Positions 32,552 to 42,770 of a stretch of DNA of 42,853 nt are shown here, in pieces; the first letter of the stretch is position 1; each line of letters begins with the position of its first letter. Source of the DNA: Martensiomyces pterosporus (lineage: Eukaryota; Kickxellomycota; Kickxellomycetes; Kickxellales; Kickxellaceae); NCBI GenBank assembly GCA_025201845.1, contig MU604056.1:1-42853 (forward strand), given 5' to 3'. The notes beneath the pieces were generated by a model. That model was not told where the DNA came from and ran no database searches. It was given only the letters and a program-made list of their open reading frames with translations. The translations under genes and the position numbers were made by a program.

Positions 32552-35500
32552 ATGTCGAAGACATTCAAGGTCGCAGTCCTCCCTGGCGACGGAGTCGGTC
32601 CCGAAGTCACTGCCGAGGCTGTCAAGGTCCTCAAGGCTGTCACTGCCATCCGCTCGCGCGCCGGTGGCGCCCAAATCGAGTTTGAGGAGCACAAGTTTGG
32701 CGGCTGTGCCATCGATGCCACCGGATCGCCATTCCCCGACGAGACACGCGCTGCATGCGAGGGCGCCGATGCCATTCTTCTTGGCGCCGTTGGCGGTCCT
32801 CAGTGGCCTCGTCCGGTTGATGCCCAGGACCCGTCCAAGGGACTCGGTCCTCGTCCCGAGCAGGGGCTCCTTGATCTGCGGAAATCCCTTGACCTGTTTG
32901 CCAACATCCGGCCCATGACCTTCCCCGCAGGCACTCTGACGAGCTGCTCTCCTCTCAGGGAGGACCTAGTGCGCGATGCCGAGTTTGTTGTTGTCCGCGA
33001 GCTGGTTGGCGGGATCTACTTTGGCAAGCGCGAGGAGGAGAACGCCGAGGGCAAGGCCTACGACACCATGGAGTACTCTGTGCCCGAGGTCGAGCGCATT
33101 GCTCGCCTCGCCGGTGCTCTTGCCTCCAAGGCTCGCCCGCCGATGGCCATCCACTCCATCGACAAGGCCAATGTTCTGGCTACCTCTCGTCTGTGGCGCC
33201 GTGTAGTCACCGACGTCATCACCCGCGAGTTCCCCAAGGTCCGGCTCGACCACCACCTTGTTGACTCGGCATCCATGCTCATGGTCAAGAACCCACGCGC
33301 CCTTAACGGCATCGTTCTCACCGAGAACATGTTTGGCGATATTCTCTCTGACGAGGCCTCGGTCATCCCTGGCTCTCTTGGGCTCCTGCCCTCGGCTTCC
33401 CTCAACAGCGTTCCCTCTGCTGGCAAGCTCAGCCGCGGTTTGTACGAGCCCATCCACGGCTCTGCACCCGACATTGCCGGGCAGGGTGTCGCCAACCCAA
33501 TCGGAACCATTCTCAGCGCTGCTATGATGCTGCGTTACTCATTCAACCTCGAGCGTGAGGCCAACATCATCGAGCTCGCAGTGCGCCGCGTCCTCGACAG
33601 CGACGAGCTGAACGGCTGGAACATCCGCTCCAAGGACCTCGGTGGCAGCGCCACCACCGCTGAGATTGGCGATGCCGTCGTGCGCGCTGTCACTCCGTAT
33701 GCTGAGGGCCTCAACGTCGAGGACCGCGCTGCCCCTGCTGCGCTCCTCCTTGAGCGTCCTGCTGGCCGCCGCGGCATGACTCTTTGCGAGAAGATCATTG
33801 CTCACCATGCCATCGGCCTCACTGCACCTGGCGACATCAGGCCCGGAGACATGGTCTGCGTCAGCGTTGACTGGACTATTGCCTCGGAGCTCACGTGGAA
33901 GGGCATGGACAAGACGTACAACGCCATGGGCCGCCCTGGCGTCAACCGCAACGACCGCTTCTGGCTCGCTGTCGACCACACAGTCGACCCTCGCATCATG
34001 CACCAGGCCAAGCCCAAGGAGCTCGTCTCGACCTCGGCTGCCTTTGCCGAGGAGGCGCATTTGGTCGACTTCTACCGCCCCAACTACACGATCCTCCACA
34101 CCGAGTTCTACCGCGAGCGTGCGCAACCCAGCCAGCTGGTCATTGGCGCCGATTCGCACACCTGCTCCGGGGGCGCAGTCGGTGCCCTGTCGATCGGCAT
34201 GGGTGCTGCCGATGTCGTCATGCCCCTTGTCACTGGCGAGACCTGGCTCCAGGTGCCTGAGACGGTCGAGATCCGCTTCATCAATGCTCCTCCGTTCGGT
34301 ATTGGCGGCAAGGACATCATCTTGGACGTTCTCCGCCAGCTCAAGCGCAACACTGTTGCCTTTGAGCGCGCTGTCGAGTACACCGGCCCTGGCCTCAAGT
34401 ACATGAGCTGCGATGCTCGCTTCGCCTGCGCCAACATGGCCACCGAGTTTGGCGGCATTGCTGGCGTCTTTGAGGCTGATGAGATCACTGCTGCGTACAT
34501 TGCCAAGCGCAAGAGCCCCGAATACAAGAAGCACTCGCTCTACTTCCGTGCCGACCCTGATGCCCAGTACGCCGAGTCCCACGTCATCGATCTCTCTCAG
34601 GTCGACTCCCTCGTTGCTCTGCACCCCAGCCCCGACAACGTTGTCCATGTTGATGAGGTCAACATGGATCTCGATGGCTGCTTTATTGGTGCCTGCACCA
34701 CCGCTGAGGAGGATCTTATCCTCGCTGCCCTTGTCCTCGAGGCTGGGCTCAAGAAGGGGCTTGTCCCTGTCGAGAGCGGCAACCGTCGTGTCACTCCTGG
34801 CTCGGTGCCGATCCTTGCCAAGCTCCGCCGCCTCGGCCTCATTGATGTCTACCAGCGCGCTGGGTTCAAGATCGGTGCTCCTGGCTGCTCGTACTGCCTT
34901 GGCATCGCCGCCGATGTCGCTGGCGACGGTGAGGTGTGGCTCAGCTCGCAGAACCGCAACTTCAAGAACCGCATGGGTCCTGGCTCGATCGGCAACCTTG
35001 CGTCGGCTGCCACTGTCGCTGCATCCTCGTTCGCCATGAAGGTCACCAACCCACGCGACCTCCTTGATCTCATTGACCGCAGCCGCTACAACAAGATGCT
35101 CGACGTGTGGATGGACAAGGCCGAGGAGATTGCTGTCTCGGAGCCCAACCCCGTCCTTGCCGAGGCCCGTGGCGAGACCATCGCCTCGCGCGACACTGAC
35201 GGTGCTGCTGCATCCGACGCTGCCGATGCTGCCGGCCAGCCCGCCGACTCTGCCAGCCTCATCGCTGGCAAGGTGCAGCGGTTCGAGGACAACATTGACA
35301 CGGATGCCATCATCCCTGCGCAGTTCATGCCTGGTGTCTCCGACGAGGACCTTGGCACCCATGCCTTCCAGTACTTCCGCCCCGAGTTCCGCGAAAAGGT
35401 TGCACAGGGCTACGACATCATCGTTGCTGGCGGTGGCTTTGGCTCTGGCTCTTCGCGCGAGGAGGCGCCTCGTGCCCTCAAGGGCGCGCACGTCAAGGCC

Positions 35501-35860
35501 GTCATTGCCAAGTCGTATGCGTTCATCTACCAGCGCAACCAGCCAAACATGGCCCTGCTTGGCATTGTGCTCAAGGACGAGAAGTTCTACGAGCTCGCGC
35601 AGGAAGGAGCCGAGGTGTCTATTGACCTGCCGAGCCGCAAGATCTACTGCGGCGGCCACTCGTTCTCGTTCAACCTGTCGACCATGGAGGAGCGTCTGAT
35701 TCTTGGCGGCGGTGTCACTGAGATGTACAAGAAATACGGAAACCTCCTCTTCCGCGCAGCCATCGCTGCCGACCCCGAGTCTGTCCTCCAGAACGCTGGT
35801 GCCTGCGGCAAGCCCGTCTCTTGCGGCGACGCGGAAGCGCAGCAGCAGCTTGCCTGGTGA
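32552..35860 (+). CDS. Fusion of 3-isopropylmalate dehydrogenase with a LeuC/LeuD-type dehydratase
   Basis: One unbroken frame of 1102 codons. Residues 1 to about 390 are a complete LEU2-type 3-isopropylmalate dehydrogenase: [50 protein letters not shown], the catalytic-Asp segments LVDSASM and [12 protein letters not shown], and [17 protein letters not shown]. After a short linker, about 409-870 is an aconitase-superfamily large subunit (LeuC type) with [19 protein letters not shown] (Asp534) and the three 4Fe-4S cysteines Cys715, Cys779 and Cys782 (GACTT, GCSYCLG). An Ala/Asp-rich linker leads to a LeuD swivel domain (about 901-1075: [32 protein letters not shown]). There is no targeting peptide, so a cytosolic location is likely. 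Codon use is strongly biased, suggesting high expression. It could run two consecutive leucine steps. The dehydratase half differs from yeast Leu1, so its substrate is inferred from the fusion. Confidence 0.93.
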
Positions 35861-36098
35861 AAAACAGCTGCTCTTTTTTGCTTTCTGTTTGTCATTGCCA
35901 TTTTTATTTATATATACAAGCCCACATCAAAGCACACCTGCTTCTCGAGCCGGCACGTGGCTGAGGGTGCTGGCTGCACCTTGTATTCGATTTCATTCCT
36001 TGCTGTTCTCCATCCTTGGAGGTGGCACCTTCCTTCTTTTCCTCAACGCACGCTCTCCCCACCACACACCCACGCATTTTTTAGCGCGTTTATTGGAA

Positions 36099-37235
36099 AT
36101 GACTGCCACCACACAGACACCGGAATCGAACCGCAAGCGGCTCGCTATGGGCATTATTGAGTACCTGGACAAGGCAATCGCCGAGGGCTTTGTCTCGTCC
36201 GATGGCGCCGAGAGCCTCGAGGTTGCCAGGCAGTGCATTAGCGATGCATTCGAAATCGACGTTGAGGATGAGTCGCAGACCAAGGAGCTATCCATCAAGC
36301 CCTTTGCTTTGGACAAGGTGTTTGAGGTGTACTTGAACACTCAGGCCAAGCTTGGCGCCGCCTCCAGCAGTGCTGCTGCCTCGGAGCCCGCTGCCGCTGC
36401 TCCACCAGCCAGCCCGTCGGACGAGGACAGGAAGCGCGCTGAGGAGTTCAAGGCTGAGGGCAACAGCCTTGTGATGAAAAAGGAGTATGCTGAGGCCATC
36501 GCTGCTTACACCAAGGCCATCGATGTTGTCCAGGACAACGCCGTCTACTACGGAAACAGGGCGGCTGCATACAGCCAGACCGGCGACCACGAGAAGGCCG
36601 TGGAGGACGCCAAGAAGGCGCTGGAGATCGACCCTGCGTATAGCAAGGGATACTCGCGCATGGGTCTTGCCTACTACGGCATGGGCCAGTTCAGAGAGGC
36701 TGTGGAGGCTTACGAGAAGGGTCTGGAGCTTGACCCTGAGAACAAGTTTATGAAGACCTCGTTGGAGGCTGCAAAGGGCAAGCTGGGCGGCTCGGGTGTG
36801 GCTACCCCTGCTGCTACCACGTCGAACCGCTCGACGCCTGCAGCTGACTCGGGAGCTGCCGGTGGCCTCCCGGGCGGCCTTGATCTGGGCTCGCTGATGA
36901 GCAACCCAGCCCTGATGAGTATGGCGCAGAACATGATGGCTAACGGCGGGCTGGAGCGTCTGATGGGCAACCCTGCTGTTGCGCAGATGGCCAACAACTA
37001 CCGCAACAGTGGCCAGATGCCCAGCATGACTGATATGATGAGCAACCCGGATATTATGAACATGGCGCGCAGCTTTGCTAGCCCTTCGGGCAGCAGCGAC
37101 AACAGCAGCGGCGGTGGCGACTCCAACCCGATGGCATCGCTGCTCAACAACCCTGCTCTGAGGGACATGGCCCAGCAGTTCATGAGCGGCAACAGCCAAA
37201 GCGACCAGGACGGAAACACCAATGAATCCCAGTAA
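36099..37235 (+). CDS. SGT2: TPR co-chaperone Sgt2/SGTA
   Basis: Co-chaperone that takes tail-anchored membrane proteins from the ribosome to the Get4-Get5/Get3 pathway and binds Hsp70/Hsp90. Seen from ATG 36099 (378 residues): the N-terminal SGTA dimerisation domain (about 10-85; MGIIEYLDKAIAEGFVSSD), an Ala/Pro linker, three TPR motifs (about 111-228; AEEFKAEGNSLVMKKEYAEA, VYYGNRAAAYSQTGDHEKAV, YSKGYSRMGLAYYGMGQF), and a C-terminal Asn-Pro-Met-rich domain (MSNPALMSMA, MGNPAVAQMA, LLNNPALRDMAQQF) that binds hydrophobic segments. The frame is open upstream into the LEU fusion, but the ATG at 36099 begins the conserved domain. Only 238 bases separate it from the fusion stop; a TATATATA-like stretch lies near 35909. 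Confidence 0.94.
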   Translation: MTATTQTPESNRKRLAMGIIEYLDKAIAEGFVSSDGAESLEVARQCISDAFEIDVEDESQTKELSIKPFALDKVFEVYLNTQAKLGAASSSAAASEPAAAAPPASPSDEDRKRAEEFKAEGNSLVMKKEYAEAIAAYTKAIDVVQDNAVYYGNRAAAYSQTGDHEKAVEDAKKALEIDPAYSKGYSRMGLAYYGMGQFREAVEAYEKGLELDPENKFMKTSLEAAKGKLGGSGVATPAATTSNRSTPAADSGAAGGLPGGLDLGSLMSNPALMSMAQNMMANGGLERLMGNPAVAQMANNYRNSGQMPSMTDMMSNPDIMNMARSFASPSGSSDNSSGGGDSNPMASLLNNPALRDMAQQFMSGNSQSDQDGNTNESQ

Positions 37236-42582: not shown

Positions 42583-42696
42583 CGGACTCCAAAAGGGGAG
42601 AGAGCCAGCTCAGCGGCTCACATCAATAGTACACCTTTGAACACCAAGCAAAACAAAGAAAGCACCAATGAGAGGCAAAAAGAAAAAGGGAGGGAG

Positions 42697-42770
42697 TGAT
42701 TTCTGCCAGGTTCGAACTGGCGACCGTCTGCGTGTTAGGCAGACGTGATAACCAACTACACCAAGAAATC
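42697..42770 (-). tRNA. tRNA-Val (anticodon AAC)
   Basis: A 74-nt minus-strand cloverleaf without intron. The acceptor stem GATTTCT pairs with AGAAATC; the D-arm has AGTTGGTT; the anticodon stem TCTGC/GCAGA encloses the loop CTAACAC, so the anticodon is AAC (valine); the T-arm GCCAG-TTCGAAC-CTGGC is perfect; the discriminator is A. CCA is not encoded, as in eukaryotes. Confidence 0.95.

What the first reader, a model, noticed from the sequence alone, without database searches (positions are those of the whole stretch)
32552..35860. LEU2-type dehydrogenase fused to a complete LeuC-LeuD-type dehydratase in one frame
Seen: one 1102-codon frame with all catalytic motifs of 3-isopropylmalate dehydrogenase followed by the iron-sulfur cysteines and the swivel domain of an isopropylmalate isomerase-type enzyme, without stop or intron. 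Known: in model fungi LEU1 and LEU2 are separate genes, and the isomerase acts directly before the dehydrogenase. Inference: the fusion may channel 3-isopropylmalate between two active sites, with the domains in reverse pathway order. I do not recall a described enzyme of this make-up, but I could not search.
Basis: partly seen in the sequence, partly recalled or inferred. Interest (0 to 1): 0.88.

Follow-up and report, generated by a model that had tools for sequence, protein, structure and literature searches.

The report
Fused two-step leucine enzyme in fungi
In this early-diverging fungus one gene makes a single protein that very probably does both the isomerase and the dehydrogenase step of leucine synthesis, which bakers' yeast gives to separate genes, and related proteins suggest that the fused form is the older fungal arrangement.

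Summary
Window 32552-35860 is one uninterrupted 1102-codon frame: 3-isopropylmalate dehydrogenase, then an aconitase-type iron-sulfur dehydratase with swivel domain. It is no oddity of one assembly: 99 of the 121 sequences examined (query included) are fusion-length, from Kickxellales, Glomeromycotina, Mortierella relatives, Entomophthorales, chytrids, Blastocladiomycota, Neolecta and some protists. In this genome it is the only LEU2 candidate and the only isomerase candidate found: the other aconitase-family genes are mitochondrial aconitase and homoaconitase, and nothing reaches the LeuC/LEU1 cut-off. The dehydratase half is not yeast LEU1 but a separate LeuC-LeuD family with relatives (45-54%) in Myxococcota and other bacteria. 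The domain order B-C-D is that of the bacterial leuABCD operon; four metagenomic proteins carry A-B-C-D in one chain. Trees of the two halves largely agree, and stand-alone LEU2 of Dikarya, Mucorales and chytrids nests at several places among fused sequences, so an old fusion with repeated splitting is the better reading. The chain ends in Trp, like clients of the cytosolic Fe-S machinery. Ten library searches gave no printed description. Both activities and channelling are untested.

The parts
32552..35860 (+). whole fused gene, 1102 codons plus stop
32567..33679 (+). IPMDH (LeuB/LEU2) domain, residues 6-376
32852..33352 (+). IPMDH substrate and metal residues R101, R110, R149, Y156, K205, D238, D263, D267
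   Evidence: alignment columns of A1; numbering against Thermus recalled
33704..33763 (+). junction between the IPMDH and LeuC parts, residues 385-404
   Evidence: between the domains placed
33764..35071 (+). LeuC-type iron-sulfur dehydratase part, residues 405-840
34694..34897 (+). codons of the three cluster cysteines C715, C779, C782
   Evidence: C779 and C782 in 49 of 49 rows, C715 in 48 of 49 (one gap)
35165..35251 (+). flexible linker, residues 872-900
   Evidence: pLDDT under 50
35261..35764 (+). LeuD-type swivel domain with GSSRE, residues 904-1071
   Evidence: Pfam Aconitase_C; matches 2pkp and 3vba
35765..35857 (+). C-terminal tail ending Leu-Ala-Trp; residues 1083-1102 predicted floppy
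   Evidence: role inferred from PMC10623007

Best explanation
The gene encodes a bifunctional cytosolic leucine-biosynthesis enzyme. Its C-terminal LeuC-LeuD part holds a 4Fe-4S cluster and interconverts 2- and 3-isopropylmalate; its N-terminal part oxidises and decarboxylates 3-isopropylmalate with NAD+. In this fungus it stands in for both LEU1 and LEU2. It descends from a fusion older than the fungal groups sampled, with domains in the leuB-leuC-leuD order of the bacterial operon; Dikarya, Mucorales and several chytrids kept a split-off LEU2 part. Shown here: architecture, conserved catalytic residues, folds, no other LEU1/LEU2 candidate in this genome, spread, tree patterns. Inferred: both activities, maturation through the C-terminal Trp, splitting rather than repeated fusion, and descent from an operon.
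For: IPMDH half over the leuB equivalog cut-off. Catalytic residues kept. Confident model with IPMDH and IPMI/homoaconitase large-subunit folds. Other aconitase-family loci are homoaconitase and mitochondrial aconitase, other Iso_dh loci are IDHs and a homoisocitrate-dehydrogenase-like gene, no TIGR00170 match over cut-off. IPMS, KARI, DHAD and class-IV aminotransferases are present, so the pathway lacks only what this protein offers. Fusion to IPMS as well in four metagenomic proteins. Trees. Tail.
Against: The dehydratase half passes no NCBIfam cut-off for isomerase or anything else. Fungi that have their own LEU1 also carry stand-alone members of its family (Aspergillus luA as LEU1 in PMC8262921), so the family could have another substrate. 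A Mortierella alpina study lists a separate LEU1-like gene while Mortierella relatives have the fusion. The tail is LAW, not the strict tripeptide. The tree's outgroup is not one clade. Nothing was assayed.
Confidence: 0.85

Rival explanations
1. The dehydratase half acts on another acid (an aconitase- or homoaconitase-like or side-pathway substrate), and a LEU1 that the assembly lacks does the leucine step.
For: Best model matches include homoaconitate hydratase and putative aconitate hydratase families; stand-alone paralogues exist in fungi that have LEU1; completeness of the assembly unknown.
Against: Aconitase and homoaconitase are encoded elsewhere in the genome; the fusion partner is IPMDH, and in four proteins IPMS too; the loop [10 protein letters not shown] lacks the Arg of the homoaconitase small subunit YLRT (its role is recalled).
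Confidence: 0.1
2. The same B-C-D fusion formed independently several times in fungi, rather than once with later splits.
For: Stand-alone and fused LEU2 alternate in the tree (9 changes for the stand-alone label, at least 4 forced by starred branches); stand-alone LeuC-LeuD genes exist to fuse with.
Against: Over 30 fused proteins the two halves share 13 of 27 splits and only one pair of strongly supported splits conflicts; same order and similar length each time; the LeuC-LeuD halves of most fungal fusions lie together and follow fungal groups.
Confidence: 0.2
3. The frame is an assembly join or a read-through of two genes, not one protein.
For: None found; no transcript of this organism was available.
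Against: Same architecture and similar length in many separately sequenced organisms and in EukProt entries with transcript-type labels.
Confidence: 0.01

Closest known systems
Bacterial leu operon products LeuB, LeuC, LeuD
   Same: Same three parts in the same order; leuA-leuB-leuC annotated in that order in an E. coli plasmid and in Buchnera pLeu (leuD after leuC recalled)
   Different: Separate polypeptides there, one chain here; the LeuC-LeuD half is of another subfamily than TIGR00170 leuC
Yeast LEU2 (fungal IPMDH)
   Same: Stand-alone fungal LEU2 proteins are the closest stand-alone relatives of the N-terminal half, 56-68% identical in the list shown apart from one partial Coemansia row; they nest among the fused ones in the tree
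   Different: Stand-alone, no C-terminal Trp (0 of 119)
Yeast LEU1 (single-chain isopropylmalate isomerase)
   Same: LeuC and LeuD in one chain and a C-terminal Trp tail (PMC10623007)
   Different: TIGR00170 score far below cut-off; joined to IPMDH
Stand-alone eukaryotic LeuC-LeuD paralogues (oomycetes, Umbelopsis, Backusella, Aspergillus, Scheffersomyces)
   Same: Same LeuC-LeuD family, about 60-66% identical over the LeuC part for the full-length rows of these groups; 86 of 94 end in Trp
   Different: No IPMDH part; function not established here
Bacterial LeuC-LeuD chains of Myxococcota, Calditrichaeota, KSB1, Planctomycetes, Ktedonobacterales
   Same: Prokaryotic relatives of the dehydratase half at 45-54%; LeuC to LeuD in one stop-free frame in 55 of 63 loci
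   Different: No IPMDH in the same open frame in any of the 63 loci; IPMDH directly upstream only in L060 among the bacterial ones

Membership tests
3-isopropylmalate dehydrogenase (LeuB/LEU2) | Score over the TIGR00169 equivalog cut-off | tested here: met
   456.3 against 353.2
3-isopropylmalate dehydrogenase (LeuB/LEU2) | Conserved substrate and metal residues | tested here: met
   R101, R110, R149, Y156, K205, D238, D263, D267 in P0001 (mapping recalled)
3-isopropylmalate dehydrogenase (LeuB/LEU2) | NAD+-dependent oxidation of 3-isopropylmalate | not testable with these tools
   No assay possible
Isopropylmalate isomerase, canonical LeuC / yeast LEU1 | Score over the TIGR00170 cut-off | tested here: not met
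   135.5 against 560.25
Isopropylmalate isomerase by function | Three cluster cysteines and GSSRE substrate motif | tested here: met
   shared with all aconitase-type enzymes, so not specific
Isopropylmalate isomerase by function | Interconverts 2- and 3-isopropylmalate | not testable with these tools
   Inferred by elimination and fusion partners
Homoaconitase (LYS4) | Score over the TIGR00139 cut-off | tested here: not met
   196.1 against 529.9; a separate gene scores 866
Mitochondrial aconitase | Score over the TIGR01340 cut-off | tested here: not met
   131.5 against 825.35; a separate gene scores 1096
Client of the cytosolic Fe-S targeting complex | C-terminal [LIM]-[DES]-[WF] (PMC10623007, passages) | tested here: not met
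   Ends LAW: positions -1 and -3 fit, -2 does not; 32 of 99 fusion-length sequences meet the strict rule, 95 of 99 end in Trp

The most novel reading that the evidence does not exclude
Leucine synthesis in the ancestor of fungi, and perhaps of a wider set of eukaryotes, ran through one polypeptide laid out in bacterial operon order (B-C-D, in some lineages A-B-C-D). The yeast layout of separate LEU1 and LEU2 is then derived: LEU2 was cut out of the fused gene several times, and an unrelated LEU1 took over the isomerase step.
Probability: 0.55. Interest if true: 0.72.

Novelty: new variant of a known kind. Interest (0 to 1): 0.56.

Why it matters
LEU1 and LEU2 are classical fungal marker genes, and their separateness is taken as the fungal norm. 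A fused enzyme kept across many early-diverging fungi changes how leucine genes should be annotated there, where the names given include 'putative aconitate hydratase' and '3-isopropylmalate dehydrogenase'. It offers a shared character for deep fungal relationships, and a natural case in which an Fe-S isomerase and the dehydrogenase that consumes its product are held in one chain, so channelling can be tested directly by splitting the protein.

Tried and rejected
Considered and set aside: (1) assembly join, by the conserved architecture. (2) Dehydratase half as yeast-type LEU1, by the TIGR00170 score. (3) Dehydratase half as the organism's aconitase or homoaconitase, since both exist elsewhere. 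(4) Direct transfer of a ready-made bacterial fusion: none of 63 prokaryotic loci has IPMDH and LeuC in one stop-free frame; but that scan used only two peptide patterns, both from the dehydratase, so it is not exhaustive. (5) An oomycete origin of the window, my first guess from the lack of introns: nearest proteins are Coemansia.

Led nowhere: Rfam scan, 0 matches. The plasmid search with the dehydratase half gave under 40% identity in the 20 rows shown. The 2010 paper on the homoaconitase loop was seen only as a citation in PMC7308503. Canonical LEU1 was not searched for in other fungi, the three protein searches being spent; whether it coexists with the fusion elsewhere is known to me only from the M. 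alpina table. The VIA list spans mainly residues 3-384, so the swivel domain was not tested by fold on its own.

Rows dropped or chosen: alignment A1 holds 49 rows that I chose from the listed hits. One search lost 14 of 66 planned rows to a motif rule of mine; one search cut by alignment instead, with a reduced set in which 9 of 12 chosen bacterial rows entered (L034, L070, L086 fell out). One search took 28 of the 37 fused and 21 of the 26 stand-alone rows, leaving out among others the long-branched Pezizomycotina fusions. My motif patterns were too strict for the IPMDH half (32, 60, 67 and 68 of 99 for four of five), so I rely on the alignment columns. The clades tested were named after seeing the tree.

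Full report

Catalytic residues. I mapped the Thermus IPMDH residues from memory. All eight positions are kept in P0001. Over 49 aligned fusions D238 and D267 are invariant; R110, R149, Y156, K205 and D263 differ or are gapped in one or two rows each; R101 is kept in 38 of 49, the other 11 being ten Pezizomycotina rows and P0103. C779 and C782 are invariant, C715 is present in 48 of 49, and the serine and arginine of GSSRE are invariant. The substrate loop reads [15 protein letters not shown], where the homoaconitase small subunit 2pkp has IIPGPYLRTTDPYEL and the IPMI small subunit 3vba has ILPARYLVYTKPEEL. That the Arg in the homoaconitase loop sets specificity is recalled; PMC7308503 (passages) says that this region determines substrate preference.

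The genome. The assembly has 17.4 Mb in 216 contigs; completeness is not given. Nearest proteins are from Coemansia, 87-89% over the full length, order Kickxellales. Besides this gene there are two aconitase-family loci: a homoaconitase (866 against 530) and a mitochondrial aconitase (1096 against 825); the swivel-domain search finds the same three places. The other four Iso_dh loci are two NAD-IDH (490 and 495 against 432), one NADP-IDH (630 against 397) and a homoisocitrate-dehydrogenase-like gene whose leuB score is 226, under 353. TIGR00170 finds nothing over cut-off, while the control is over cut-off in 9 of 14 genomes. Of four HMGL-type loci I scanned three: IPMS (677 against 532), a homocitrate-synthase frame (378, below its 414 cut-off) and HMG-CoA lyase (476 against 246). 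The IPMS carries the LeuA allosteric domain. KARI, DHAD and five class-IV aminotransferase loci are present. So the pathway is complete only if this protein is both isomerase and dehydrogenase. These searches read six frames without regard to introns and score only the best candidates, so the absence is strong but not final.

Spread. The whole-protein search listed 120 of 921 hits. Of these 120 plus the query, 99 are at least 980 aa long. They come from Coemansia, Mycoemilia, Zancudomyces, Smittium, Rhizophagus, Gigaspora, Mortierella and relatives, Entomophthora, Neoconidiobolus, Massospora, Tieghemiomyces, Dispira, Syncephalis, Calcarisporiella, Jimgerdemannia, Synchytrium, Entophlyctis, Piromyces, Allomyces, Blastocladiella, the ascomycete Neolecta, and a diverged set at about 50% in Fusarium, Clonostachys, Verticillium and others. 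EukProt entries bear labels that I recall as Physarum and as an ichthyosporean strain; the look-up of the latter's species name found nothing.

Relatives of each half. With the query cut to LeuC length, stand-alone LeuC-LeuD chains of the same family appear in oomycetes, Umbelopsis, Backusella, Gongronella, Aspergillus, Scheffersomyces and others (120 of 1629 hits listed). With the query cut to IPMDH, stand-alone LEU2 of Basidiobolus, many chytrids, Mucorales, Mortierella alpina and Dikarya appear (120 of 8000). In prokaryotes 63 loci encode relatives: 59 bacterial ones at 45-54% (Myxococcota and other Deltaproteobacteria, Calditrichaeota, KSB1, Planctomycetes, Ktedonobacterales and others) and four Asgard ones at 29-35%. 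LeuC to LeuD is one stop-free frame in 55 of 63 loci; not in L053, L059, L068 and the four Asgard loci, and L076 is cut short (L081, counted in, has frame breaks earlier in LeuC). IPMDH lies within 400 bases upstream of LeuC on the same strand in four loci: L060 and the Asgard L079, L080, L090. In none is it in one stop-free frame with LeuC; in L079 and L080 the two share the frame and are parted by one stop. The L060 IPMDH passes NF002898 (401 against 393) and is only 34% identical to the fungal one, so no bacterial locus here is a direct model of the donor.

Order of domains. The E. coli plasmid record and Buchnera pLeu both show leuA, leuB, leuC in that order; leuD after leuC is recalled. 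The fusion is thus B-C-D. Four metagenomic proteins (P0102, which lacks the start of its IPMS part, P0109, P0110, P0111) are A-B-C-D in one chain, and none shows the LeuA allosteric domain. The order mirrors operon order, not pathway order. That an operon was captured and its genes fused is inference.

History. In the LeuC-LeuD tree the nine bacterial rows form one clade (99), most fungal fusions follow fungal groups, and the Pezizomycotina fusions stand apart with stand-alone paralogues. In the careful LEU2-half tree stand-alone genes fall at several places among fused ones: Mucorales and Umbelopsis beside Jimgerdemannia (100/98), basidiomycetes and Saitoella with Neolecta (99/92), Basidiobolus beside Syncephalis (90/91), chytrids mixed. 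The label 'stand-alone' needs 9 changes, at least 4 forced by starred branches. Holding all 21 stand-alone rows together is rejected (418 lnL units, p-AU 2e-43), and so is holding the 22 fungal fused rows together (416 units). Over 30 fused rows the two halves share 13 of 27 splits; among splits with bootstrap 95 or more only one pair conflicts, over the place of Mycoemilia. One old fusion with repeated splitting explains this with less than repeated identical fusions would. Weak points: the four bacterial outgroup rows do not form one clade (Gemmatirosa joins Physarum, 86/38), many splits are unresolved, and no formal reconciliation was made.

Tail. 95 of 99 fusion-length sequences end in Trp, as do 86 of 94 stand-alone LeuC-LeuD chains of 640-770 aa, against 0 of 119 stand-alone LEU2. 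PMC10623007 (passages) reports that a C-terminal [LIM]-[DES]-[WF] directs Fe-S delivery by the cytosolic assembly complex, that yeast Leu1 needs its Trp for full function, and that a Leu1 tail raised the activity of an engineered E. coli LeuC-LeuD chain in yeast more than threefold. Here the end is LAW; 32 of 99 meet the strict rule. I infer the same role with a relaxed middle position.

Print. Ten searches of the PMC library listed no paper whose title or abstract start describes this fusion. The passages shown from PMC2904702, PMC8880518 (section 3.1), PMC3901274, PMC8262921 (12 of 24 places), PMC9202105 and PMC11237513 do not mention it. PMC8880518 lists for Mortierella alpina a LEU1-like LeuA2 and LEU2-like LeuB1 and LeuB2. 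Most subscription papers are not held, so a description elsewhere is possible.

Verdict. The best reading is a bifunctional leucine enzyme that replaces LEU1 and LEU2 here and is a widespread, old form among early-diverging fungi. Channelling is open.

Noticed in passing
Proteins P0102, P0109, P0110, P0111: Metagenomic proteins with IPMS, IPMDH, LeuC and LeuD in one chain, without the LeuA allosteric domain that the IPMS of the window's genome has; host organisms unknown.
   Followed up: partly
P0109, about residues 330-580: An intein-like insert in the IPMS part: weak Pfam Intein_splicing match, 23.6 bits, below the 35.8 cut-off.
   Followed up: no
P0080, P0082, P0085, P0086, P0089, P0093, P0097, P0099, P0101, P0108: Pezizomycotina copies of the fusion have lost R101 and D307 and carry Asn for His302; P0099 has also changed R110, R149, Y156, K205 and D263. 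They look like altered or partly dead dehydrogenases with an intact-looking dehydratase.
   Followed up: partly
L079, L080, L090: Asgard archaeal loci with IPMDH, LeuC and LeuD genes adjacent in that order; in L079 and L080 IPMDH and LeuC share the reading frame and one stop parts them.
   Followed up: partly
L029-L078 and L081-L089: A bacterial single-chain LeuC-LeuD family; the four members scanned pass no NCBIfam cut-off as isomerase or aconitase, but three of the four list TIGR02087 (LeuD/DmdB small subunit) over its cut-off. Neighbours in some loci are IPMDH- and IPMS-like genes.
   Followed up: partly
P0263 and P0030: The stand-alone Mortierella alpina LEU2 entry (381 aa) is very close to the IPMDH half of a fused Mortierella protein, so it may be a shortened gene model or a recent split.
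   Followed up: no
window 35703-37235 (+): The listed frame overlaps the fusion's end only through a TTG start; an ATG at 36099 in the same frame is the likelier start of this SGTA-like TPR gene.
   Followed up: partly
window 42696-42770 (-): tRNA-Val (anticodon aac); other neighbours are housekeeping types such as tubulin, PTPA, proteasome, U1-70K and MFAP1, with no further leucine gene among the frames scanned.
   Followed up: no
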